Shown: positions 25,298 to 64,000 of the stretch, in pieces | Layout: each line of letters opens with the position of its first letter | Position numbering within the stretch: the first letter of the stretch is position 1 | Source: Lumbricus rubellus | Lineage: Eukaryota > Annelida > Clitellata > Crassiclitellata > Lumbricidae | Direction of reading: 5' to 3' | Length of the DNA: 64,000 nucleotides | Assembly (NCBI GenBank): GCA_945859605.1 | Contig: OX243819.1 | Location: forward strand, 1,990,861-2,054,860 | Notes under the pieces: generated by a model | What the model was told of the DNA's origin: nothing | The model's input: the letters and a program-made list of their open reading frames with translations, nothing else | The model's database searches: none | Made by a program: the position numbers and the translations under genes

Positions 25298-28200
25298 TCA
25301 TTTAAGAAGTAAGTGATTCAGCTGGATGACCTCTCCAACATAGTTCTCGAGTTCTACGCAATCCATGATGCAGATGTTAATCCCCTCTTGGCCAGCGGTC
25401 TTTGTCTTCAGCCACTCCACAAAGGGTCTGGCCGCATCTCGCGCCAGAGTCACCTTCAGGGTCGAACATAAGTGACATACGACATATCCCGTGTCTGGTG
25501 TCAGCACACCTTGAGTGACGTAGAACGACGACATCTTTCTAGGCTGTTTGTAGTTAGCCTCAAGCTTCTTCAACAAGTCTGTGACCTGGACACTATTTGG
25601 CCATGGTGAATCGATGCTACACCCTGGCCAAAGCTGCGGAACATCCTTTCCGATGCAGTCGTGGTAGAAGACGATCAGCTGGAAAGCATGGTCTGACATA
25701 AACTTCAACGTAACTTCTTTCACATCCGTCAGAGGACAGAGTTTCGATCCAAACCGTTCAAGAACTTTACTGATTAAGCTCCGATGTGCTTCCAACGTGA
25801 CGGCATAGAAATGGTTGAAATCCAGAAGGACCACCTCTGACGTGTGACTGTCCAGAAATGAAGCAATCTCTTCCAGACAGCTTTCTATGCTAGGTCCATA
25901 CAGACCATGGACAGCATACAGCTCACTGCAGTTCGGCTTTGCCCCAACTCGAATATCAAAGTAGCGGATTCCTGCCTTGAGCTGATCGCATACGGACAGT
26001 GACTGAACTGTTGACCAGTTGTAGACGATGTTTTTGACACACGGTCCCATCTTTCCTAATGTCTGTATCACCGGCGGTTGATCAGGAGAGATGGGACCTG
26101 ATTTGTCGAGGTAGAACGTGAAAGTCTCGTGCGAACCTGGAAAGAAAATGTACAATTTAACATTAAAAATAAAAAAATTAGGCTACCATACGTTATGGTC
26201 CAGAGCCAGACTTCTCTATTTGTCTACAATGACATACACGGTGAACGGACATTATCCTCCCTGGACATTATCCCCCGGACATTACCCCCCCTCCGGACAT
26301 TATCCCCCCGGTTTTTCGTAGGACATTATCCTCCCGGACATTATCCTCCCTTCATGTACAAATCCTAGAATAGTGCCGTAACCCAGGGGTTTTCAAACTG
26401 GTCCGCGGACCCCTGGGGTCCGCGGCTTGTTGCCAAGGGGTCCGCGAAGCAGGTCCAGAAAACCATAAAAAAAGTAGTACATTTGCAATGTTTTCATTAT
26501 CATCTAAAATTATATATAAAAAATAACAGCTATAAAACAACTGAGTTATAAAAACATCTGAGCTATCTATATGGTTATTACTTACTGAAGTCTAGTAACA
26601 ACCTGTTTTTGCTCATTAAAAAAATATAATTTTTATAGGCTAATTTTACATAACATTAGTTCCTTCTGGTGCTATTTTAGTACACGTTAGTGTAATTGTG
26701 ACGTGCCAACAGAGACGCCATTGCTGCTAGACGGAATTGCTGCTATATTAAAAAAATATAATATTAATATTTTCAACGTTCTTCATAACCATGGATAAAT
26801 TTCTAGAGAGAAAAACTGATCAGAACTCCAAAGATTCTGACGACAAAGACAAATGTGAGAAAAAGGAAAAATTCTGCAAGTAGGCATATGATCCTCACTT
26901 CCCAGAGTAGGCGTACATTTCATTATGGTTTCATTGCAAACGGAACAAATTATGATTAGGCTAACCTCTTTTGTGTTATTTCATGAGTGTGCAAACTCTG
27001 TCTAATCAGGATTCAATGAAACACGTGAAATTAAAGCGACATTTAAGGACAATGCATGCAATTGCAGATGTTGCTAAAGGAATATCTCGAGCGACAAACG
27101 GAGCTGTAGGCCTAGGCTACTTAAAGCAGAAAGGTAAAATAACAGCTTTCGCCATGTGCAGTACACGAGAAAGCTCTATGTAAATCGCATTAGGCTAGTA
27201 GCATTGCGAATAGCACGAACGAGAAAGCCTCACACAATTGCGATTGGCCAAATTTATTGCATAGGCCCATGGGGGTCCGCGACCAAGCCACCACATGCTA
27301 CGGGGGTCCCCAGCTTAAAAAAGTTTGAGAACCCCTGCCGTAACCGATAAGACTTCGAAAGTTCTTAATGCCATTTAACTAGGCCCTAACTACATCTGAC
27401 CTTTCCATTCAAAATTAAATTCAATACAGTAGAGAAATGAACGAATGGGAGTCGTCTACAGTAGGTAGCCCTACGAAGGTTTGCTAACGTCATTGACGTA
27501 GGTCCAATTAGTGTCAGTAGGCAAATATTTCCTGACGTGAGGGTAGGTTAGGGCTCAGGTTCTAAAGGCGTAGTGAGGGTCGGTTAAGGTTAGTTTTAGG
27601 GTTAGTGCAGTCATTCTGCTGAAATTGAAGCTGGATTGATGAACAATAAGTGTTGTAGACTGGGGGGGGGTAATGTCCTACCCCGGGGGGGGATAATGTC
27701 CGAGGGGATAATGTCCGGGGGGGATAATGTCCGGGGGATAATGTCCAGGGGGATAATGTCCTACACCCGACATACACATGCATGCAGGCCTATCATTATT
27801 AGGCTTATAGAATATCAGTCAGTGATGGATTTGAGTTCAGCTAAGCTGAGTCCGAGTCCAAAGGAGTTCGAGTCCGTGTCACTAAGGATCGAGATCAAGT
27901 CCGAGGAAATAAATGGATTATGTAAGCAGTGAGGTATAGGCCTAAATAAGTTAGGCCTAATAAAGCATTAACTGGATTGCAATTTTTTGAAGCTGTGGCT
28001 ATTTATTCTGCCGTGCTAAGCAAAAAGACAGTAACTCAAGTTTTTCAGTTTTTGAGTTAGCACTTGTTTTCACATCCTGACAACATGTTCTATCATAAGT
28101 GGAAGCAAGGAAACGGTATCGGTCCGGGAACATGGAACAAAACGGAAACGAAATTAACAGTATCTCAAAATTGGGTCGTCGTGCTAAGCAAAAACGCAGT

Positions 28201-29806
28201 AACTTGAGTTACTGTCTTCTTGCTTAGTATTCCATGTATATTCAAGGCCGGCCGATTTACAGATATTTCAATATATCGGCTTTCAAATCACCTAGAATCG
28301 TCATCTTGGTGTCAAAACATACACATTAAAGGTCAAGGATTCCAATGGGGCCATTACAAAGTTCCTCATGACCTCAATGACGGCCATTTTGGAAAATGGC
28401 CGCCGTTGACGACCCAAAAAGAGGGATTTTTCAATATCTCGGCTTTTAGTTCACTTGGAATCGTCATTTTGGTGTCAAAACATACACATTTCGGGTCAAG
28501 GATCACAATAGGGCCATCACAAAGTCCTCTTTGACCTCAATGGCGGCCATTTTCTAAAATGGCTGACCCAACAAGAAGGATTTGTCAATATCACGGCCTT
28601 CAATTAACTTAGAATCGTCATCTTGGTGTCAAAACATACACATATCAGGTCAAGGATCCCAATAGGGCCATCACAAAGTTCCCCATGGCCTCAATGGCGG
28701 CCATTTTCCAAAATGGCGGACCCAAAAAGAGGGATTTGTTAATATCTCGGCTTTCAATTCACTTGGAATTGTCATCTTGGTGTCAAAACATGCACATTTC
28801 AGTCAGGGATCTCAATACTGCCATCACATAGTTCCCAGTGACCTCAATGACCACCATTTTTCTAAATGGCCGACCCAAAAAGAGAGATTTGCAAAATTCA
28901 CATTTTGGACGGCCATTTTGAAAATGACCGCCATTGAGGCCAGATGAAGTTTTGGGAGGCCCCATTGGAATCCTTGTCCCTAAATATGTATATTTAGGCA
29001 CCAAGATGACGATTCTAAGTGGATTTAATGCTGAGATATTAAAAAATCACGATTTTGGTCGGCCATTTTGAAAAATGGCCGCCGTTGAAGCCAGAGTTGA
29101 TTTTAGATGGCACTATTGGAATCATCGTCTCTAAATATGTATGATTAGACACTAAGACGACACTTCTAAGTTAAATAGAAGCCGAGATATTTAAAAATAT
29201 GTATATCTGCCGGCCATTTTGGAAAATGGTTGCCATTGGGGCCAGAGAGCTAATCTGCAATGACCCTATAGCCAAATATTTTTCTTAGGACATGTTCGTA
29301 GTATATACCAAATTTCATTCTTGTATCGCAAAGAGAACATTTGCTTTTCACCAGCCCTCTCTAACAAACGATGAGTTACTGCTTTCTTGCTTAGCATCGA
29401 ACCGATGTTCAATTCTTCGATACTAAGCAAAAAAGCAGTATCTCATTTTTATACTATTTTTTACACAAATTTAACGAAAAACGAGTTTAGTTCCAAAATT
29501 CAGTAGTTTATATATAACTGTTTGCAAAAATTCAGAAAGATTCTAGCTTTATTTCTGGTTGAATTAAACCGATTTCTTCTTTATCGTTTTACGCAAAATC
29601 GTCTTTTTTGAGTTACTGTCTTTTTGCTTAGCACGGCAGATTAGGCCTATAAGAAACAAATTTTCTCCACCTGGAATGGCCAACTGGTTAAGTGGAATCT
29701 CACGAAGCTGTTGAGGTAGTTTCTCTATCCATCTGGACTGATCCAAGTCATCCAACACAATCTGACTCAACTCTCCATCAAACACCGTCTCGCCAAATGC
29801 TGCCAT
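25298..29806 (-). CDS. PLCXD: PI-PLC X domain-containing protein B (PLCXD family), two exons
   Basis: Paralogue of the gene at 17734-19509. Coding exons are 29806-29671 and 26136-25298, with a 3534-bp intron (donor GTGGAG, acceptor TTTCTTTCCAG) at the same codon position and phase as in A. Spliced length is 975 nt, giving 324 residues. His48 sits in Gly-Ser-His-Glu (A has Gly-Ser-His-Asp), Asp106 and Arg108 in Gly-Ile-Arg-Tyr-Phe-Asp-Ile-Arg, and His122 in Val-His-Gly, so the X-domain active-site set is kept. The start at 29806 has A at -3 and G at +4. Like A it is a lone X domain with no signal peptide. The first 25 residues differ most between the copies; the Ile-Pro-Leu-Asn-Gln-Leu-Ala-Ile-Pro-Gly stretch is identical. 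Both frames are open and share most residues, so both are probably functional. The intron is swollen by at least three transposons and would be about 360 bp without them. Confidence 0.92.
26384..27337 (+). mobile_element. hAT element, internally degraded
   Basis: Ends CAGGGGTTTTCAAAC and GTTTGAGAACCCCTG are classical hAT termini. The perfect 8-bp target duplication CCGTAACC is at 26376-26383 and 27338-27345. Sub-terminal GGTCCGCGG/GGGGTCCGCG blocks occur on both sides. It is 954 bp long and non-autonomous, nested in element a. Confidence 0.92.
26791..27183 (+). pseudogene. remnant of a BED-finger hAT transposase
   Basis: An ATG at 26791 opens 30 codons beginning Met-Asp-Lys-Phe-Leu, as many ZBED-type hAT transposases do, ending at a stop at 26881-26883. 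Downstream (about 26990-27060) another frame reads Thr-Leu-Ser-Asn-Gln, then Lys-Leu-Lys-Arg-His-Leu, then Met-His, resembling the end of a BED zinc finger. Stops and frame changes separate the parts and the catalytic region is absent. Only the N-terminal DNA-binding portion is represented. Confidence 0.65.
28008..29639. mobile_element. 1.63-kb palindromic element, copy 1
   Basis: Ends are CTGCCGTGCTAAGCAAAAAG and its exact complement. The left part holds four to five direct units of about 135-160 bp (motifs GGTGTCAAAACATACACAT and CAATGGCGGCCATTTT); the right part holds inverted versions (for example ATTTAGGCACCAAGATGACG). The terminal motif recurs internally as two palindromic pairs (about 28170-28235 and 29365-29450). 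The flanks are ATT on both sides, so target duplication length is unresolved. No transposase. It lies in the intron of PLCXD B. Confidence 0.85.
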
Positions 29807-31293: not shown

Positions 31294-31819
31294 AAGTTTT
31301 ATACTGGCGGATAGGTTATTCAAATGAAAATGTTAATATGAAAAAATTAGATCACTACCTCACTTATTCAAATTTTAGCGCCAATTTCCGTGACGTCATC
31401 AAATTCGTGCCAAGTAAACGTCCAGTTTTGCCGCAAACAATATTGTACGACCATCATTGTTAAACCACACATAATTAATTAATACAAATTATCATTTAGT
31501 ATTTAGTAATGTTTTCTATACTCTTTATTACAGCCTCAAGTCGATTAGCCATCGAGCCAAACATATTTTTCAGAGTTGTCAGAGGTAGGCTAGGCCTATC
31601 GATGTCCATGCCTTACGAAGCCGACGTTTTAAGGTGTTCAGTGTCTGGGGTTCGGGTTCGACATAAACAGTTGGATTAACAAAACTTCATATCATTTCAA
31701 ATAAATCTTCAGTCACTTCGACTTATTACATCAACGTGATACAGGAGAAAGAGGTCAAACCGCATTCCAGCGAAGTACAGTCTGCGCTCAGTTCACAGCC
31801 ACAAAAATGTTTCATAATA

Positions 31820-32066
31820 ACGGCGAAGGATTATTTCAACAAGACGGTGCACGTGCAAACACATCAAAGGCCTCAGTCGAATGGTTGAACAAGAATATCA
31901 ATGGATAGCCTACATCTCACCGAGGGACTGGCCGCCTAATTCGCCGGATTTGTCACCAATGGAAAATGTTTGGAGTATTATGGCGGCAACTGTTTATGCC
32001 GATACCGAACCCCAAACGACCTTAAAACGTCGGCTTTGTAAGGCATGGACAATTGGACATCAATAG
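31820..32066 (+). pseudogene. Tc1/mariner transposase C-terminal fragment
   Basis: Frames with Gln-Gln-Asp-Gly-Ala-Arg-Ala and Asp-Trp-Pro-Pro-Asn-Ser-Pro-Asp-Leu-Ser-Pro-Met-Glu-Asn correspond to the second aspartate region and the last catalytic region of Tc1/mariner-type transposases. At least one frame break lies between them (near 31890-31905). The N-terminal DNA-binding part and first catalytic region are missing. It is non-functional as it stands. Confidence 0.85.
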
Positions 32067-32475
32067 GCCTACCTCTGACAACTGAGAAAAATCTATTTGG
32101 CTCGATGACTAATCGACTTGAGGCTGTAATAAAGAGTAAAGGAAGCATTATTAAATACGAAGTGATAATTTGTATTATATAATTATGTGTGGATTAACAA
32201 TGATGGTCGTAGGCCTACAATATTGTTTGCGGCAAAACTGGACGTTTCATTGGCACGAATTTGATGACGTCACGGAAATTGGCGCTATAATTTGATTAAA
32301 TGAGCTAGTGATCTAATTTTTTTATATTAACATTTTCATTTGAATAACCTATCCGCCAGTATAAAACTTTTCACATTATATTGTGTATAACATATATTTG
32401 TCTGCATTCAAAATCGTTCACGACCTATCGAGACACCCTAGCCTATATAATTAAGCTCGGAATTTTTATTGGTGT

Positions 32476-32621: not shown

Positions 32622-33232
32622 GGTTTACTGTCAATACCGCGCATACAATACCGCGCACACAACACCGCGCACACAATACCGCGATTTTCAATACCGTGCA
32701 CGATCGTTACCGCGCACGATCGATACCGCGAATTTGTTCAATCCAGGTTATATTTCACACCTATAAATACCTCCATCCAGCTTCTATTTCTCGCTCGTTA
32801 TTTTCGTCAATCCAGCTTCTATTTCATATATAAAAGTACCCTCATCCAGCTTCCATTTCTCATGCTTTATTTTCGTCAATCCAGCATCTATTTCAGACAT
32901 AGAAGTACATTAATCCAGCTCTTATTCCCATGCTTTATTTTCGTTAATCCAGCTTCTGTTTTATATATATAAAAATACCCTCATCCAGCTTCCGTTTCTC
33001 ATGCTATATTTTTGTCAACCCAGCTTCTATTTGACACATAGAAATACCATCATCCAGCTCGTATTTATATGTATTTATAAGTCTGAAATAGAAGCTGGAT
33101 TGACGAAAATAAAGCATGAGAAATAAGAGCTGGATGAAGGTTTTTCTATGTCTGATAAAAAAGCTGGATTGAACAAATTCGCTGTATCGATGTGTGCGCG
33201 GTGTTGTGTGCGCGGTATTGTGTGCGCGCTAT
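32622..33232. mobile_element. foldback-type element c, ACCGCGCACACAAT terminal arrays
   Basis: The left array (32633-32730) of AATACCGCGCACACAAC-type units is inverted at 33177-33230. Between them are alternating ATCCAGCTTCTATTTC and ATCCAGCTTCCATTTC repeats (32740-33070), then two in reverse. The left edge reads GGTTTACTG, matching the GG start of its relatives. The right edge has no clear CC, and no target duplication was found, so that end may be truncated. Confidence 0.65.
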
Positions 33233-33808: not shown

Positions 33809-33944
33809 GTAGCGGTAGCTTCTATTTCATCAATATTTCAACTCTGTAGACGAGTTGTCGTTAGACCAATAATAATTATTGTCCGTAGACGAGTTGTCGG
33901 TAGACGAGTTAATTAATTGTCGGTAGACCAATTGTCGTGCAACC
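33809..33944. mobile_element. remnant of element b family
   Basis: 33846-33944 is a degenerate right-hand array of TAGACGAGTTGTCG units ending GTCGTGCAACC, the same terminus as element b. A reverse-strand ATCCAGCTTC-type motif precedes it. No left array or target duplication, so it is a truncated or solo end. Confidence 0.55.
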
Positions 33945-34737
33945 TCTGTTGGTTGTTCTGCAATGAAGACAATTAATTTTGCCGCCAACTTCTAATTTGC
34001 CATCCTTTATTGCAGAAAATTATTGCTGTTCAGTTTTTCATTTTAACGTTTAAAAAATTAAAAATATGAAAACTGAAACCTCTCCTGCTGCGCAGAAACT
34101 CTTCGCAAGCGTCAAGTTCACGAAAAGTGATGAATCAATTGAGACAGTCACGAAGTAACTCGGTTGGTGACTGAATTTCTCTGAAAGACACGACACAGTC
34201 GTAGGCCCTATAGCTGCAACTGGGGATTTGGCTCAGCTCTTATATAGTAGAGCCAGCTTATAAGGGATTCGTCAAGCAGAATTACATTAGGTCACACATA
34301 GACCTGTCATACCTTGCAGAGAACTCATGAAGCATGCAGAACTCCTTTTCAGCAAGAGTCCATTTAGTACGTTTTGTTAAATCCCCCAAAGTCTTGCATT
34401 GTGCATTGTGCAAGGACGACTATTTTAAAATGTACCTGTGCTCTGAGTAAGTGAACTATCTGCAAGTTTTTATTTGATTTCGAGAAAGCAGATTATTTAG
34501 TCCTACAATCACAAAGTTTGTTATGTTAATTTGACCTATTTGTTGGGCTAATTCGCAGAATTGAATAGCCTACGTTCAATGCTGTTTTTATTAAATTTCC
34601 GACATTGCTGAAGTTGAAAATGTTGTGCCATAATTCCATAACCACACTTTATTTTGAAACCAAAAGTAGCCTAAAAGAGTTGAACAGAATGCAGTAGGTT
34701 ATAAAGAATTTTATAGCCTATTTCCTTGAAGGGGTCA
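33945..34737. other. gene-free stretch
   Basis: Unique-looking AT-rich sequence. No coding, RNA or repeat feature recognised. Confidence 0.4.
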
Positions 34738-34745
34738 TTTGAAGG

Positions 34746-35011
34746 CAGTGGCGTAGCCAGGAATTTACTATAGATTTTATGGCCTGGGGATTATGGCTTG
34801 GCCGGATGCCCTTCCTGACACCAACCCAACAGTATTAGGCCTACAGTAAATAAAAAGAGAATAAAGTAGATAAGGGAATAAAATAAGAAAGACAATTTAT
34901 TGTTATTGCAAATAAATGTTTTTTTCTTCTTAGTTAAGTGGATAACCTTTTAAAAGACTTTTTCCTAAGAATTGTTTAACCCCCCCATAGCCACCCTTGT
35001 CTACGCCACTG
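34746..35011. mobile_element. 266-bp hAT-like MITE, CAGTGGCGTAGCCAGG ends
   Basis: Starts CAGTGGCGTAGCCAGG, ends CTACGCCACTG, and is flanked by the perfect octamer TTTGAAGG (34738-34745, 35012-35019). No coding capacity. 35020-35394 beyond it is gene-free. Confidence 0.9.
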
Positions 35012-53816: not shown

Positions 53817-55459
53817 CTGCCGTGCTAAGCAAAAAGACAGTAACTCAAGTTTTTCCGTTTTTGAGTTAGCACTTGTTTTCACATCTTGACAACATGTTCT
53901 ATCATATCTGGAAGCAAGGAAACGGTATCGGTCCTGGAACATGGAAAAAAACGGAAACGAAATTAACAGTATCTCAAAATTGGGTCGTCGTGCTAGGCAA
54001 AAACGCAGTAACTTGAGTTACTGTCTTCTTGCTTAGTATTCCATTTAGGCTATATTCAAGGCTGGCCGATTTACAGATATTTCAATATATCGGCTTTCAA
54101 ATAACCTATAGAATCGTCATCTTGGTGTCAAAACATACACATTAAAGGTCAAGGATTCCAATGGGGCCATTACAAAGTTCCCCATGACCTCAATGACGGC
54201 CATTTTGGAAAATGGCCGCCAATGATGACCCAAAAAGAAGGATTTTTCAATATCTCGGCTTTTAGTTCACTTGGAATCGTCATTTTGGTGTCAAAACATA
54301 CACATTTCGGGTCAAGGATCACAATAGGGCCATCACAAAGTTCTCTATGACCTCAATGGCGGCCATTTTTCAAAATGGCCGACCTAACAAGAAGGATTTG
54401 TCAATATCACGGCCTTCAATTAACTTAGAATCGTCATCTTGGTGTCAAAACATACATATCTCAGGTCAAGGATCCCAATAGGGCTATCACAAAGTTCCCC
54501 ATGGCCTCAATGGCGGCCATTTTTCAAAATGGCGGACCCAAAAAGAGGGATTTGTTAATATCTCGGCTTTCAGTTCACTTGGAATTGTCATCTTGGTGTC
54601 AAAACATGCACATTTCAGTCAGGGATCTCAATACTGCCATCACATAAATCCCAGTGACCTCAATGACCACCATTTTCCAAAATGGCCGACCCAAAAAGAG
54701 AGATTTGCAAAACTCACATTTTGGACGGCCATTTTGAAAATGACCGCCATTGAGGCCAGATGAAGTCTTGGGAGGCCCCATTGGAATCCTTGTCCCTAAA
54801 TATGTATATTTAGGCACCAAGATGACGATTCTAAGTGGATTTAATGCTGAGATATTAAAAAATCACGATTTTGGTCGGCCATTTTGAAAAATGGCCGCCG
54901 TTGAAGTCAGAGTTGGTTTTAGATGGCACTATTGGAATCATCGTCCCTAAATATGTATGATTAGACACTAAGATGACACCTCTAAGTTAAATAGAAGCCG
55001 AGATATTTAAGAATAAATTATGTATATCTGTCGGCCATTTTGGAAAATGGCTGCCATTGGGGCCAGAGGGCTAATCTGCAATGACCCTATAGCCAAATAT
55101 TTTTCTTAGGACACGTTCGTGGTATATACCAAATTTCATTCTTGTATCGCAAAGAGAACATTTGCTTTTCAGCAGCCCACTCTACCATACGATGAGTTAC
55201 TGCTTTCTTGCTTAGCATCAAACCGATGTTCAATTCTTCGATACTAAGCAAAAAAGCAGTATCTCATTTTTATACAATTTTTACACAAATTTAACGAAAA
55301 ACCAGTTTAGTTCCAAAATTCAGTAGTTTATATATAACTGTTTGCAAAAATTTAGAAAGATTCTAGCTTTATTTCTGGTTGAATTAAACCGATTTCTTCT
55401 TTATCGTTTCACGCAAAATCGTCTCTTTTGAGTTACTGTCTTTTTGCTTAGCACGGCAG
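53817..55459. mobile_element. 1.64-kb palindromic element, copy 2
   Basis: Nearly identical along its whole length to 28008-29639 and in the same orientation, with the same CTGCCGTGCTAAGC ends. It is flanked by TATA on both sides. The shared small open frame (near 54600-54820) lies in the repeat units and is not considered coding. The high similarity suggests recent mobility. Confidence 0.88.
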
Positions 55460-57616: not shown

Positions 57617-58856
57617 CCCTCGGGCTACCAGGGGGGGGGTGGTATCCACCCCCCCTAGGTTTTTCCCAAATCAAACTTGTTTCGTTTGGAATAAAATTTT
57701 GACGTTGCTGTAGAGGATTCATTTGCACACATTTTGAGCTAAAATGTGTGATGATATACCAGTGCTGTCCAACCTTTTTTACACAGCGGGCCACTGAAGA
57801 AGGTCTCTTGAAGCCGAGGGCCGCAACGTCGAATTTAAAAGCAACGAGCATAATATTCTAATGAAAACTGTTTAAGCTGTATTAAAATTACTATGGAATA
57901 AATCATAATGAATTCGTCGTGGAAACTGGATTTTGTGTTCACATTGTCAAATAATAAGCCACGTTATGAACTTATGGCTATGCAAGTTGACTTGCGATTT
58001 ATTTTTCTCCATTTTCTAAAAAATATAAAACAACTTCACTAGCTTAGGCGGGCCACTTGAAATCACCTCGCGGGCCGCATGCGGCCCGCGGGCCGCAGGT
58101 TGGACAGCACTGTGATATACCATACCATTCAAAAGTTATACCCGATATACCCGAGGCACCAGAGGGGGTGGATACCACCCCCTTAGATTATCGGCTGTAT
58201 CTTATCCGTCCTTTGACATGAAGAGACACAAATTACACCATTCTGTTTTATTTTTATAACATTTTCATGTTTTTTCTATTATAACTTATTTATAATTTAT
58301 TTTTCAAGAGAAATAAATTATGTCATTCTATAGAGGGCGTGTAGGGCTATTTTTTGATACCAATTAATGTGACATTTGATGACCGGAAGGGCTCAAAATA
58401 AGTTTAAATGTGTGAAAATGTTGGGTTTTTTTTACAACGCAAACCGATAAGTCTGCGTAAACGTTTTTCAGCAGCTGTTACATGTTTTTTTTCTTTTTAT
58501 TATAATTAAAACTAACTTATTACTAGTTTTTATAGTTGAACATTGTACTTTATTATATGTAAACTATTATTGTATAAATAAATTATGTTAAAACACACAG
58601 AATCTACTATTTTGCTTATGCGAAAGTATGCATTTTGTGAAATCGACGGGTGCCTACGGGAAGAAAATCATAATTCCGGGGTGCTTTTATAGCCTATATT
58701 TTAAACCTAAATATACCATTTTGTGCAGAAATGAATGCTGAATCCATTGATGTATTACAAGTTATGATATCTCAAACCAAACCCAAAATCCAGTGGGGGT
58801 GGTAACCACCCCCTCCTTGGTAGTCAGTGTTACAAAAAAGCTTGGTAGCCTGAGGG
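57617..58856. mobile_element. piggyBac-like non-autonomous element
   Basis: Ends CCCTCGGGCTACC and the complement of CCCTCAGGCTACC. TTAA follows on the right (58857-58860) and TTAG precedes on the left (57613-57616), consistent with a TTAA target with one change. Subterminal GGGGGTGGT(A/T)(T/A)CCACCCCC hairpins occur on both sides. No transposase frame. A hAT MITE is nested inside. Confidence 0.65.
57760..58112. mobile_element. 353-bp hAT MITE, CAGTGCTGTCCAACC ends
   Basis: Ends CAGTGCTGTCCAACC and GGTTGGACAGCACTG, a perfect octamer TGATATAC on both sides (57752-57759, 58113-58120), and a subterminal GCGGGCCGCATGCGGCCCGC palindrome. Nested in the piggyBac-like element. Confidence 0.92.
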
Positions 58857-59112
58857 TTAACCTTGAAAGTGCGCATGAAACATGGGCCCTGTATGGACTG
58901 CACATATGTGCCTAATTTGGCGCGTTTAGCCGTATATATAAGGTTTTTATTAATATATAGGCCTACAGTTGCCTCCGTAGCACTTACAAACAATTTGTTA
59001 TGGAGTTTTCCTGTCAGGAGCAAAATTAATGCTGAGTTATAGGCCTACACATGGTCCTACGACCAATGGAAAAGCTATTAAAGTGGACATGAGATCATTC
59101 TCAATGGAAGAC

Positions 59113-59133
59113 GGGGGGGGGGGGGGGGGGGGG
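59113..59133 (+). repeat. G21 homopolymer
   Basis: Twenty-one consecutive G. Exact length is prone to sequencing error. Confidence 0.85.
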
Positions 59134-59711
59134 CTAAGTTGAAAGCAGCTAGGTATATATAGTGGAAAATGGAATTATACCCATGGGCGGAGACTTTGGG
59201 GAACCATAACCATAACCACAGTTTTTATTGCTCAAAGTGACAGTTGAGAAAACATCTTTGTTACATATAGTGTATATAGAAACTAACAAAAAGCAAAAGG
59301 AAAGAACCCTTGAGGGACTACTGTCCCACTGTCAGGGTTTCCCAAATACAAGTGCAAGTAAACAGCAACAGGTTATAGGGCCTACAAATAATAGAGTATT
59401 AAAGTGAAATTTTATCTTAACTATAGTTAAGCTTAATTAAACAATAGTAAACATCCTGGGAAAAACGTCTAAAGGTGACGTTGAGTGTAAGTTTGTTGGG
59501 GGTCCCGGAGATGTTTTTATTTCAGACATAGGCTATTCATAAAATAATATGTTAATTTATGCATTGTTATCCTCTGTGTATCCACAATGTCTAACGCCTT
59601 TAATGACTGCAGATTAGCTGATTCATGGCGGACTGTCCGCTCTGCATAGGCCTAGCGCCCTAGCCTAGGCCTATAATTGCTGATGATGATGCTGTGTGCT
59701 GGCTTAGCGCG
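59134..59711. other. gene-free stretch
   Basis: A MITE-like left end (CATGGGCGGAGACTTTGGGG, about 59183). No gene. Confidence 0.4.
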
Positions 59712-59720
59712 AACTGCAAA

Positions 59721-61459
59721 TAGACCTGGGAGTCGACCCCAATAAGTCGACCCCAGTCGACTTGGTCATCCCAAGTCGGGTCGGGTCGTTTCTGCTCACC
59801 GCAACTGACCCCAAATCGAATTGTGTAAAGAGAAGTCACTTCATTAAAATGATGAAACAAAATGTTACTAAAATAACATTTAGCACGTGTACTTATGAAG
59901 ACATGAACATGATAATGAGCAAATCAATTAACTTCTATAGCCTAGACTAAGTGGTAGGCCTAGGCCTAAGTGAATTCGACGCTACTTTGGCAGGCCTACC
60001 GGTAACCTGCATCGGCAGTAACTTGTCTGCATATGGAAAAGCTATTTATACGGGCTAATTGGACAATGAAAGACTTTACTGTCAGTGAGTAGGCCTACTA
60101 ATAGTATCCTACTGTAGGATGATGCGCTTGCAATGTTTTTTGCTAAGTTGCGAAATGATGTTAGTGGCCGATCAATTATGACAACTAACTTACAAAATTA
60201 ATTAGCACTAGGCTCTATAGGACGTCATTCAGTGCAATCAGTCCGCGGTCCCCAATTTTATCTTCGTGCTTGCTCGCTTTACAAATTTATTCAATATTAA
60301 TAATATTAAAAAAATAATGAGTGTAATCTGAATAATCACAGACATTGGGCAAGCTAAAATTCATAGGCCTAATAATTTGCAGTCTAGGCTACTAGATGGC
60401 CCAAAGCATCACAAAACTATTCAAACTGAAGCACAAACAGCCTGAAATGGGCTTGAAAAACTTTAACAAATTCATGCATCAATAATGAGTGTTGATGCCT
60501 CATTACTCATTGGTAGGCCTATTCTAAAATAATGTTTCCCATGCAAAATTGGCTTGCCTTCTTGCATTGGTAGCCGTATCATATGTAGACCTATGCTAAG
60601 GCTATAATTACCGGTGTCACGACAACTGGTCTACAGACAACTCGTCTAACGACAAGTGGTCTCCAGACAATTCGTCTACGACAACTGGTCTACGACAACT
60701 CGTCTACGACAACTCGTCTACGACAACTCGTCTACAAACTACTCCAGCTTCTATTTCACCCATATAAAACCATCATCCAGCTTCCATTTCAAATAAAAAG
60801 ATACCTTCATCCAGCTTCCATTTCTCAAAAGTTTTATCATTAATCCAGCTTCTTTTTAGCCTATATAAACCTTAATCCAGCTTCCATTTCTTTATCGCTT
60901 TTTTGATAAATCCAACTTCTATTTCAGATCTATAAATTCCTTCATCCAGCCTCCATTTCTTTAGCGTTTTTCGGCAATCCAGCTCCTATTTCAGATCTAT
61001 AATTACCTTGATCCAGCTTCTATTTCTTAAGCGTTTTTTCGTCAATCCCGTTTCTATTTCACCTACATAGATATGAAATAGAAGCTGAATGAAGGTATCT
61101 TTATATTTGAAATGGAAGCTGGATGAAGGTTTTATATAGGTGAAATATAGGTGAAATAGAAGCTGGAGTAATTTGTAGACGAGTTGTCGTAGACGAGTTG
61201 TCGTAGACGAGTTGTCGTAGACCAGTTGTCGTAGACGAATTGTCTGGAGACCACTTGTCGTTAGACGAGTTGTCTGTAGACCAGTTGTCGTGGAACCATA
61301 ATTACCATGTCAGAAGTCGACTTCAAGTCAGAAGTCGGTTGGTTTTCTGCCAAGTCGGGTCAAGTCGTTTTAATTCCAAGAAGTCGACCTCAAGTCGACC
61401 TCAAGTCACTTTAGGGTCAAGAGGGGTCAGATTAGCTGACCAAAGTCACTCCCATGACT
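59721..61459. mobile_element. foldback-type element h, AAGTCGACC terminal arrays
   Basis: Flanked by a 9-bp direct repeat AACTGCAAA (59712-59720, 61460-61468). The left end starts TAGACCTGGGAGTCGACC with repeated AAGTCGACC(CC) and GTCGGGTC units; the right end (about 61308-61459) has inverted AAGTCGACC(TC) units and closes GGGTCA..ACTCCCATGACT. The outermost bases are less alike than in its relatives. Element b is nested inside. The remaining interior (59830-60600) lacks the ATCCAGCTTC motif. Confidence 0.65.
60613..61297. mobile_element. foldback-type element b, GACAACTCGTCTAC terminal arrays
   Basis: A perfect 9-bp direct repeat ATAATTACC at 60604-60612 and 61298-61306. It starts GGTGTCACGACAACTGG and ends with the complement of GGTTCCACGACAACTGG. 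Each end is an array of about nine 13-16 bp units, and the two arrays match unit by unit in inverse order, including variant units. The interior (60740-61160) is alternating ATCCAGCTTCTATTTC and ATCCAGCTTCCATTTC repeats, reversing near 61070. No coding sequence. Confidence 0.85.
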
Positions 61460-61468
61460 AACTGCAAA

Positions 61469-62147
61469 CGCTAAATAAATAGCCTAAATATTCAATTTTG
61501 TTAAGATGGGGGCCGTCCATAAAGTACTTCACGCTCCAGGAGGGGAGGAGGTGTAAGAAAATGACAGTTTGTGACAGGGGAGGGGGTCAGGCCATGTGTG
61601 ACGTCACACATTTATTTTTTAAATTTTATTTCTAATTTATTTGTTATTTTTTTAGTAGAATTTAATAGCTTTAAAAATAATTTTCAAAAATTTTGTGAAA
61701 CATTTGAATTAGTTTTGTGTCAAAATAGCATGAAATTAAACATAATTCACAGGCCCATAATAAATAGATTCAATACAGCACAAGAGTTTGTCTCATAATT
61801 TGTCAATCTAGTCTTTTTTTAGTCAAATAGTTTTGTTTCCTTTTTATTATTTAATCACTGGGTGAGGTCAAGTTTCGCTAATCTACTTCCCATCCTGTGT
61901 AAACAAGATGTATTTTTCGACAATTAATAGGATAATACAGAAATATAATTATATGCTTATTATGTCATTGTACCGTTCATTATAATTATTGTCATCGTCA
62001 AATTCCAGGTGTAATTTTTAAAATCTCAAATATTCACCAGATGGCGAAACAGTAGGTCTACGTCTTAAATCCGGCTTCTATTATGTACGAGCTCTGACAC
62101 GGACAGATTGAATCGTTCGCCATTTTGCACGGTCGGTAGGCAGAGTG
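61469..62147. other. gene-free stretch
   Basis: 61495-61620 has GGGGCCGTCCATAAAGTAC and GTGTGACGTCACACA, which look like part of a transposon, but no paired end was found. No gene. Confidence 0.4.
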
Positions 62148-62245
62148 CGATTTCCGGTAAAACTGTATTTTAGCGTATTTTATTCTCTCAAAATCGATAT
62201 CATGTATTTTAGCGTATTTTATTATTTAGCGTGTGTATTTGTGTA

Positions 62246-62322
62246 GGTTCCACGACAACTCGTCTACCGACAACTCGTCTCCGGACAATTGGTCTAACGA
62301 CAACTGGTCTACTGACGAATAG
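62246..62322 (+). mobile_element. b-type left terminal array inside element f
   Basis: Starts GGTTCCACGACAACTCGTC and has about four GACAACTCGTCTAC-type units, the same left end as element b. Its right partner is not seen in the window, so it is either a truncated nested copy or part of a compound terminus of f. Confidence 0.6.
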
Positions 62323-62330
62323 CATTGATG

Positions 62331-62733
62331 GGTAAAATTCTATAACGCCGCGGTAGCAATTCTATAACGACGCGGTAGCAAGTAAACATCATGTCGGCAA
62401 AAGATCCGCGCATAATAGAGCCCATAAATCCAACTTCTAGTTTGCCGAGAATTCTTTTAATCGATCCAGCTTCTGTTTAGGCAAGAATTTGTTCGATAAA
62501 TTTCGCTTCTATGTCGTCCGCAAATGTTTTTATTCAATTTGTCATTAAAAATTATTGTTCGTCAATCCAGCTTCAATTTCAGCAGAATGACTGCACTAAC
62601 CCTAAAACTAACCCTAACCGACCCTCACGTCGCCTAACCTGAGCCCTAACCGACCCTTATGCGTAAAATCCATGATGTTTACTTGCTACCGCGTCGTTAT
62701 AGAATTGCTACCGCGTGGTTATAGAATTTAACC
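62331..62733. mobile_element. foldback-type element e, TTCTATAACGACGCGGTAGC terminal arrays
   Basis: A perfect octamer CATTGATG at 62323-62330 and 62734-62741. It starts GGTAAAATTCTATAACG and ends with the complement of GGTTAAATTCTATAACC. Each end has two 22-24 bp units containing CGCGGTAGCAATTC, then GTAAACATCATG. The interior holds ATCCAGCTTC motifs and a module of about 100 bp (62555-62668) shared with element a. Nested in the b-type/f sequence. Confidence 0.85.
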
Positions 62734-63272
62734 CATTGATGAAATAGAAGCTGGATTTACGAAAATGTTTTTTTTTGCTTAAATGGAAGCTGGATTGATG
62801 ATTTTCATTCATGTATTCCAACATGCACCCATTTCTACTTTAAATCTAAAAACACGTTCATCCAGCTTCTATTTCTCGCCTGTTAGTTTCGTCAATCCAG
62901 CTTCTATTTCAGATATAAAAATACCCTCATCCAGCTTCCATTACTTAAGCGGTTTTCTTATCAATCCAGCTTCTATTTGAGGTCTAGAAATACCTTCATC
63001 CAGCTTTTATTTATCATGCGTTATTTTCGTCAATCCAGCTTCTATTTCACCTGTAAAAGAACCATCATTCAGATTCCATTTCTCTTGCGTTTTTTCATCA
63101 ATCCAACCTCCATTTCACTTCTAAAAACTATCATCCAGCTTCCATTTCTCAAGCTCTTGGCAATAAACCGAAATCACTGAACTTCTCCATCAGTTTTAAT
63201 TAAATACGCTATTTCTTTTGAGTTTACGCGTTTGGAATAAAATACGCTAAAATACAGTTTTACCCGATTTCC

Positions 63273-63485
63273 GTTTATTTGTTAATACAATAAATGGTTA
63301 GCTCTTGATTTATACGTTTACGCCAAATTTAATTATTTTGACCATTTGTTCGACATCGCGGTAAACGTGTATTTTAGCGTCGCAAATTATTCGCTCTTTT
63401 AATTTTTTTTATCAATTCAACTTCTGGTTTGGCAGGAATCCTTCTCTTTTGCATCTTTGGGTTTTAGCAACTGATACAAAATAGT
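63273..63485. other. gene-free spacer
   Basis: Carries another GGTAAACGTGTATTTTAGCG block (about 63360) resembling the end of element f. No gene. Confidence 0.4.
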
Positions 63486-64000
63486 GGTGGCCGGACAAAA
63501 TGGTAGCGGACAAAATGGTACGGACAAAATGGTACGGACAAAACGGTATGGATGAAATGAAAGCTGGATTAGTGAATTTTTATATATGAATTAGATGCTG
63601 GATTAATGAAAAGATGCATGTGAAATGGAAGCTGGATGAAGGCTCTGCATGGATATTTTTATATATGAATTGGAAGCTGGATTGATGAAAATAACGCTTT
63701 ATATATAGAAGCTGTATCAGGGTATTTTCATAGCTGAAATAGAAGCTGGATTAATGAAAGATGCATTACAAATGGAGAATGGTTTAAGGAATCTTATGAC
63801 TGAAATTGAAGCTGGATACATCATGAAACACATGAATGAGAGACATCAATCCAGCTTCCATTTCTCAAGCACTTTTTTTCGCCAATCGGGCTTTCTTTTC
63901 TCAGGTTTTTTTCTTCACTAGAGCTGTATTTCAGCCACAAAAAAGCCTTCCACACTCTACTTCAGCAAAAAATATCCTCATCCAGCTTCAAATTATCCAT
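63486..64000. mobile_element. foldback-type element d, GGACAAAATGGTAC array, cut by window end
   Basis: Starts GGTGGCCGGACAAAATGG, followed by four GGACAAAATGGTAC units (to about 63550), then reverse-strand ATCCAGCTTC-type repeats (GAAATGGAAGCTGGATGAAG and relatives) that change to plus-strand orientation near 63850. The right terminus must lie beyond the window. Confidence 0.65.

What the first reader, a model, noticed from the sequence alone, without database searches (positions are those of the whole stretch)
60613..63264. A group of transposons whose inverted ends are arrays of short tandem repeats
Seen: elements b (60613-61297), f (62156-63264), e (62331-62733), a (26240-27768) and h (59721-61459) each have inverted terminal arrays of a short unit and exact 8-9 bp flanking direct repeats (ATAATTACC, CGATTTCC, CATTGATG, GACATACAC, AACTGCAAA). 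Four of the five start GG and end CC. Known: Drosophila FB and sea urchin TU elements also have inverted termini made of tandem repeats. Inference: this is a TU/foldback-like group of non-autonomous DNA transposons with at least five, perhaps seven, terminal types in one 64-kb window. A common mobilising enzyme recognising GG..CC ends and making 8-9 bp duplications is plausible, but none is encoded here.
Basis: partly seen in the sequence, partly recalled or inferred. Interest (0 to 1): 0.88.

Follow-up and report, generated by a model that had tools for sequence, protein, structure and literature searches.

The report
Foldback transposons with two enzyme origins
Several mobile DNA elements here end in mirrored stacks of short repeats, and the same genome holds relatives that carry likely cutting enzymes, so these look like new members of known kinds of jumping gene, probably moved by two enzyme families rather than one.

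Summary
Four of the five claimed elements (a, b, e, f) are real insertions: GG...CC ends, inverted arms, exact 8-9 bp target duplications. The fifth, h, is not: its arms align in direct, not inverted, orientation.
In the window's own 787-Mb genome b, a and e are multicopy with fixed ends. Exact duplications: b 20 of 28 copies read (17 of 9 bp); e 9 of 10 (all 8 bp, two sharing flanks); a 8 of 10 (8-10 bp).
The group has two origins. b and a have inverted arrays of 14-15 bp units. Elements with the same architecture, GG...CC ends and 8-10 bp duplications encode MULE transposases, several with a FLYWCH finger: the Phantom/foldback kind of Mutator. The inner repeat of b is the inner arm repeat of one such element. 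f differs: its arms flank a Merlin transposase fragment elsewhere, and its interior holds part of a b-type element. e, strictly 8 bp, looks f-like; its enzyme is unproven.
So the foldback reading holds for b and a; a single enzyme is not supported. No coding copy with b's own arms was found. New members of known kinds.

The parts
60613..61297 (+). element b: foldback MULE-type non-autonomous element; TSD ATAATTACC at 60604-60612 and 61298-61306
   Evidence: 20 of 28 genome copies with exact 8-10 bp TSD
60613..60735 (+). b left outer array, 8.1 units of 14/15 bp
   Evidence: array 60619-60735
61175..61297 (-). b right outer array, inverted
   Evidence: array 61175-61291
60742..61168 (+). b inner core of ~34-bp repeats ATCCAGCTTCYATTTC (10 on +, then 3 on -)
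   Evidence: the same repeat is the inner arm domain of MULE element L079
26240..27768 (+). element a: inverted arrays of GGACATTATCCCCC (26246-26350; 27687-27761); TSD GACATACAC at 26231-26239 and 27769-27777
   Evidence: inverted a-type arrays in 22 of 40 genome clusters; TSDs
26384..27337 (+). hAT-like MITE nested in a (CAGGGG ends, TSD CCGTAACC)
62156..63264 (+). element f: Merlin-type arms; TSD CGATTTCC at 62148-62155 and 63265-63272
62156..62245 (+). f left arm; other genome copies match 85-90 of these bases and stop
63157..63264 (-). f right arm and subterminal stretch, matching Merlin locus L107 up to 63252
62246..62322 (+). piece of a b-type left array (GGTTCCACGACAAC..) lying inside f
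62742..63154 (+). core repeats inside f that continue the b-type piece
62331..62733 (+). element e: 403-bp MITE; TSD CATTGATG at 62323-62330 and 62734-62741; nested in the b-type piece inside f
   Evidence: paralogous empty site in L046
32632..33232 (+). type c: inverted arrays of CAATACCGCGCACA (32632-32730; 33191-33232) round the same core repeats; no GG..CC/TSD pair found in the scans
63492..64000 (+). type i: array of CGGACAAAATGGTA (63492-63559) followed by the same core; runs off the window
33846..33945 (-). solo b-type right end

Best explanation
b and a (and probably c and i) are non-autonomous foldback elements of the Mutator (MULE) superfamily. Their inverted arrays of 14-15 bp units are probably repeated binding sites for a FLYWCH-MULE (Phantom-type) transposase encoded by related elements elsewhere in the genome; the enzyme cuts at the GG..CC ends and inserts with an 8-10 bp staggered cut, mostly 9 for b. 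f is a non-autonomous Merlin element whose interior carries a fragment of a b-type element. e is a recently amplified 403-bp MITE, probably moved by a Merlin transposase too. Shown: boundaries, TSDs, copy families, MULE genes between the same kind of arms, a Merlin gene fragment between f arms. Inferred: that these enzymes move these copies, that the arrays are binding sites, and the assignment of e.
For: MULE search of the own genome: 126 matches, 150 of 166 candidates scored. Of the 30 MULE loci cut out at +/-1.5 kb, 10 have array arms, GG..CC ends and an exact 8-9 bp TSD round the MULE hit (L049, L052, L058, L059, L061, L073, L074, L075, L076, L078). Of eight longer stretches, L079 (10-bp TSD) and L081 (9-bp) do too, and L082 does with CGG..CCG ends. 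Pfam: FLYWCH and MULE in L077, L052, L058, L059; FLYWCH in an upstream exon of L079, whose MULE frame is that of L050. Of 14 frames aligned, 8 show all three DDE motifs looked for. Public relatives of the L077 protein: 230 at E<=1e-5, 117 of the 120 listed carry both domains. L079 has on both sides, between outer arrays and gene, the repeats that form b's core (75% over 316 nt to the core inside f). First 12 end bases of a, b and seven MULE elements: 11 of 36 pairs match >=9; 2000 shuffles mean 0.6, maximum 4; a to L049 11/12. L052 and L081 transposases are 62% identical and share GGTTCCCTATCA though their arrays differ. f: of 40 genome matches to the arm, four lie within 200 bp of Merlin hits (compared by eye); L107 holds f left arm, Merlin frame and f right subterminal stretch in order. 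e against f ends 10/12, against MULE ends at most 7; shuffled e reaches 10 in 0.8%.
Against: No coding element with b's own array was found; L083 has a b-like element beside, not round, its MULE gene. 7 of 28 b copies lack a TSD. e's enzyme is not shown, and several MULE families here also make 8-bp TSDs. f's first 12 bases match the common Merlin family no better (7) than the best MULE ends (7), and e matches it less (5). L107 lacks the last bases of the right end, has only part of a gene, and its duplication ((A)AAACGTTG, read by eye) overlaps the arm; at C1 the arm points away from the Merlin hit. Frames of L049, L050, L055, L065 lack FLYWCH. MULEs with plain terminal repeats exist too (L084-L086; L086 with a one-sided inner array, L084 with inner core repeats). 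The remaining 20 of the 30 loci are not all array-armed: some show one array only, some none. The scan (56 pairs against 2 in the control) used loci fetched because they match b, Merlin or MULE, and counts some elements twice, so it is no genome-wide rate. The end sequences were picked by hand, a's left end from genome copies.
Confidence: 0.8

Rival explanations
1. All of a, b, e and f belong to one TU/foldback group moved by one enzyme recognising GG..CC ends with an 8-9 bp stagger.
For: All four have GG..CC ends and 8-9 bp TSDs; several hold the same core repeats.
Against: f arms flank a Merlin gene fragment; e and f ends match each other (10/12) and not the MULE ends (<=7); e is 8 bp in all 9 readable copies, b 9 bp in 17 of 20. 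The core inside f continues a b-type piece.
Confidence: 0.1
2. All are Merlin-family elements (GG ends, 8-9 bp TSDs); the MULEs are unrelated.
For: Merlin is abundant here (145 matches), with GG ends and 8-bp TSDs in 11 of 20 loci examined.
Against: Those 11 have simple terminal repeats, no arrays; array arms enclose MULE genes in eight families; b's core repeat lies inside MULE element L079.
Confidence: 0.05
3. The arrays are ordinary minisatellites that happen to be inverted.
For: Many simple tandem arrays occur in the window.
Against: Fixed ends with TSDs in b, e and a copies; inverted a-type arrays in 22 of 40 clusters; empty site for e.
Confidence: 0.02

Closest known systems
Tm1, Mutator/Foldback family of root-knot nematodes (PMC3169594; abstract and passages seen)
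   Same: Composite TIRs with a variable number of 13-15 bp tandem units, 9-bp TSDs, different short motifs at the two ends, MITE-like copies, and a coding member with a Phantom-type FLYWCH-MULE transposase.
   Different: Other unit sequences; here many unit types in one genome, and one inner ~34-bp repeat shared by several outer types.
Phantom MULEs (PMC6446971; passages seen)
   Same: FLYWCH and MULE domains, 8-10 bp TSDs; a minisatellite is noted in aphid members.
   Different: Phylogenetic placement not tested here; no reference sequences at hand.
TU elements of sea urchin (named in PMC4079207 through its citation; structure otherwise recalled)
   Same: Inverted termini of short tandem repeats, modular build, about 8-bp TSDs (recalled).
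Tetris, Drosophila virilis foldback (PMC4079207; passages seen)
   Same: Tandem-repeat TIRs, 8-10 bp TSDs, assigned by its authors to Mutator.
   Different: Units of about 220 bp; its authors found no transposase.
Merlin elements (PF12762)
   Same: f arms found beside a Merlin gene fragment; GG..CC ends, 8-bp TSD in the window copy.
   Different: f's interior is a b-type piece plus e; no gene inside; its end bases are not close to the common Merlin family here.

Membership tests
Foldback/Phantom-type MULE (b and a) | inverted arms made of short tandem units | tested here: met
Foldback/Phantom-type MULE (b and a) | 8-10 bp target duplication | tested here: met
   b 20 of 28; a 8 of 10
Foldback/Phantom-type MULE (b and a) | coding relatives with FLYWCH + MULE between the same kind of arms | tested here: met
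   the relation is by architecture, end bases and core, not by identical arrays; a's nearest (L049) shows MULE only in its single frame
Foldback/Phantom-type MULE (b) | a coding copy with b's own ends and array | tested here: inconclusive
   30 of 126 MULE hits cut out and 8 longer stretches read (two of them on the same 30); none has it
Phantom clade | phylogenetic placement of the transposase | not tested
   no reference sequences at hand
TU elements | homology to sea urchin TU arms | not testable with these tools
   no TU sequence; paper searches gave no paper on them
Merlin (f) | arms flank a Merlin transposase in other copies | tested here: met
   partial gene only
Merlin (f) | 8-bp TSD and GG..CC ends | tested here: met
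   window copy; in L107 the length is ambiguous (8 or 9)
Merlin (e) | 8-bp TSD | tested here: met
   9 of 10; also made by some MULE families here
Merlin (e) | coding partner | tested here: inconclusive
   none found; end similarity to f only
Inverted-array element (h) | inverted arms | tested here: not met

The most novel reading that the evidence does not exclude
These MULEs swap or replace their outer arrays as modules: one inner ~34-bp repeat core sits with at least four outer types (b, c, i and the coding element L079), while end bases stay alike between coding families whose arrays differ (L052 and L081). The genome would then hold many parallel transposase/array pairings from a common ancestor, with specificity re-set by exchanging stacks of binding sites.
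Probability: 0.35. Interest if true: 0.65.

Novelty: new member of a known kind. Interest (0 to 1): 0.5.

Why it matters
Foldback elements with tandem-repeat ends often lack a known enzyme. Here one genome offers coding and non-coding members side by side, so the pairing of enzyme and array, and how arrays diverge, can be tested directly. It also shows that GG..CC ends with 8-9 bp duplications do not by themselves tell MULE from Merlin, and that nesting can make a Merlin-type element look like a foldback one.

Tried and rejected
h as an inverted-array element: rejected; a genome search for h did not complete. A Merlin origin for the whole group: considered, rejected for b and a once array-armed MULEs were found. 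Searching with whole a returned mainly its nested hAT-like MITE; repeated without it. Rfam over 59000-64000: nothing at gathering scores. IMG/VR scan for two b units: nothing. Likeness of array units between families: a small excess (mean 5.31; 20 shuffles mean 4.73, maximum 4.93; units picked by hand), not relied on. L080 (MULE with c-type units) has an array on one side only. L043-L046 (Merlin, 300-aa frames) gave no boundaries. A family related to e gave no coding partner. The species was not identified.

Full report
Observation. The five claimed elements were read in the sequence. a, b, e and f have the stated ends and exact flanking repeats. h does not hold: its ends align in direct orientation (27) and not inverted (14, equal to the best of 200 shuffles). 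b arms are 153 nt at 97%, with 8.1 units of 14/15 bp each; a has 7.1 and 5.0 units; e about two 22-bp units per arm; f an 85-90 bp arm. A blind window scan for TIR with TSD >=8 kept 6 pairs against 6 in total in 20 Markov-simulated windows; f is one of the 6, the others are CAG-ended; e and a were kept with shorter TSDs and b was filtered out as low complexity.

Genome copies. The window lies in a 787-Mb assembly of 368 contigs. b: 4604 loose candidates, 40 scored, full-length copies at 87-97%. Of 28 read with flanks (the window copy included), 20 have an exact TSD (17 of 9, 2 of 8, 1 of 10 bp), L006 one with a mismatch, 7 none; three of the seven (L025, L026, L028) share flanks, as parts of one larger repeated unit. 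e: 1954 candidates, 40 scored; 38 of the 41 leading rows cover all 403 bp at 98-100%, a recent burst; 9 of 10 sampled have exact 8-bp TSDs, two of them with the same flanks. A paralogue of e's insertion site without e is in L046, with a single CATTGCTG where the window has CATTGATG twice. a: the whole element mainly finds its nested hAT-like MITE; without it, 22 of 40 clusters show a-type arrays on both strands round the same inner stretch (100 of its 107 rows used). Of 10 of those 22 sampled, 8 have exact TSDs of 8-10 bp, 6 with GG and CC at both edges, one 7 bp, one none. f: of 40 genome matches to the arm besides the window, 28 match its bases 1-90 and 12 its bases 1-85 or 86, nearly all at 97-100%.

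Enzymes. Merlin (PF12762): 145 matches; 11 of the 20 loci examined have simple TIRs GGCACACCTGGG and 8-bp TSDs, no arrays; nine gave no boundaries. MULE (PF10551): 126 matches. Around the 30 MULE loci supplied, TRF shows arrays of about 14-15 bp units in a good part. Ten have both array arms, GG..CC ends and an exact 8-9 bp TSD inside the stretch; L077 has both arrays but a changed left end; others show one array or none. Eight longer stretches add L079 (10-bp TSD; the longer form of L050), L081 (9-bp), and L082 with CGG..CCG ends. L084-L086 have plain terminal repeats; L086 has a one-sided inner array and L084 inner core repeats. Families with arms and TSD: L049; L052/L058; L059; L061 (no long frame); L073-L078; L079; L081; L082. 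FLYWCH with MULE is found in L077, L052, L058 and L059, and FLYWCH in an upstream exon of L079; L049, L050, L055 and L065 show no FLYWCH in the frame tested. Eight of 14 aligned frames have all three DDE motifs looked for. The L077 protein has 230 public relatives at E<=1e-5; 117 of the 120 listed have both domains.

Links to the window. The ~34-bp repeat occurs 65 times in the window at <=3 mismatches (0-3 in shuffles), inside b, c, i and the interior of f; one or a few diverged copies lie in e and a. In L079 it lies between outer arrays and MULE gene on both sides, 75% over 316 nt to the core inside f. Ends of a (genome copies) and L049 match 11/12; over nine array families 11 of 36 pairs reach 9/12, shuffles at most 4 (ends picked by hand). 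f: in L107 the f left arm, a Merlin frame and the f right subterminal stretch follow one another; the last bases of the right end are missing, and the flanking repeat (A)AAACGTTG, read by eye, overlaps the arm. Three more arms lie beside Merlin hits, one pointing away. Inside f is the start of a b-type element (97% to L046 over 78 nt) with e nested in it. e's ends match f's 10/12 and the MULE ends at most 7; but f and e match the common Merlin family's ends only 7 and 5.

Conclusion. b and a are foldback MULE derivatives; f has Merlin-type arms; e is probably f-like; h is not of this group. The mechanism (cut and paste in trans by FLYWCH-MULE or Merlin transposases) is inferred from ends, TSDs and coding relatives. 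Array units as binding sites are inferred, with Tm1 (PMC3169594, passages) and Galileo's multiple binding sites (PMC3688188, title and listing only) as precedents. Paper searches for TU-type reports.

Noticed in passing
window 26384-27337: hAT-like MITE nested in a, 8-bp TSD CCGTAACC; of the 40 scored genome matches many run from its first to its last base.
   Followed up: partly
window 31294-32369: Element with two-part inverted arms (154 and 145 nt) and a stretch that reads like a Tc1-type transposase fragment (by eye).
   Followed up: no
window 57760-58112, 34746-35011: Two further CAG-ended, hAT-like repeats with 8-bp TSDs.
   Followed up: no
L055 and L065: MULE frames ending in a C3HC4 RING finger (the MULE match of L055 is just below Pfam's cut-off). 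A RING frame is reported in Ghost MULEs (PMC6446971, passage).
   Followed up: no
L040:519-1122: Nearly complete palindrome of 604 bp, TSD ACATGCAG, multicopy with fixed ends (930 candidates, 40 scored); its arms resemble those of e.
   Followed up: partly
window 28268-29247 and 54082-55069: Two copies of a similar 154/151-bp tandem array pair.
   Followed up: no
G000 C8 35.3-39.5 Mb and C18 27.9-32.5 Mb: 16 of the 40 scored b copies lie in these two chromosome stretches.
   Followed up: no
L083:1043-1565: A b-like element with CGTCCACGACAACT units and a 9-bp TSD AGCACAAAC beside a MULE gene.
   Followed up: no
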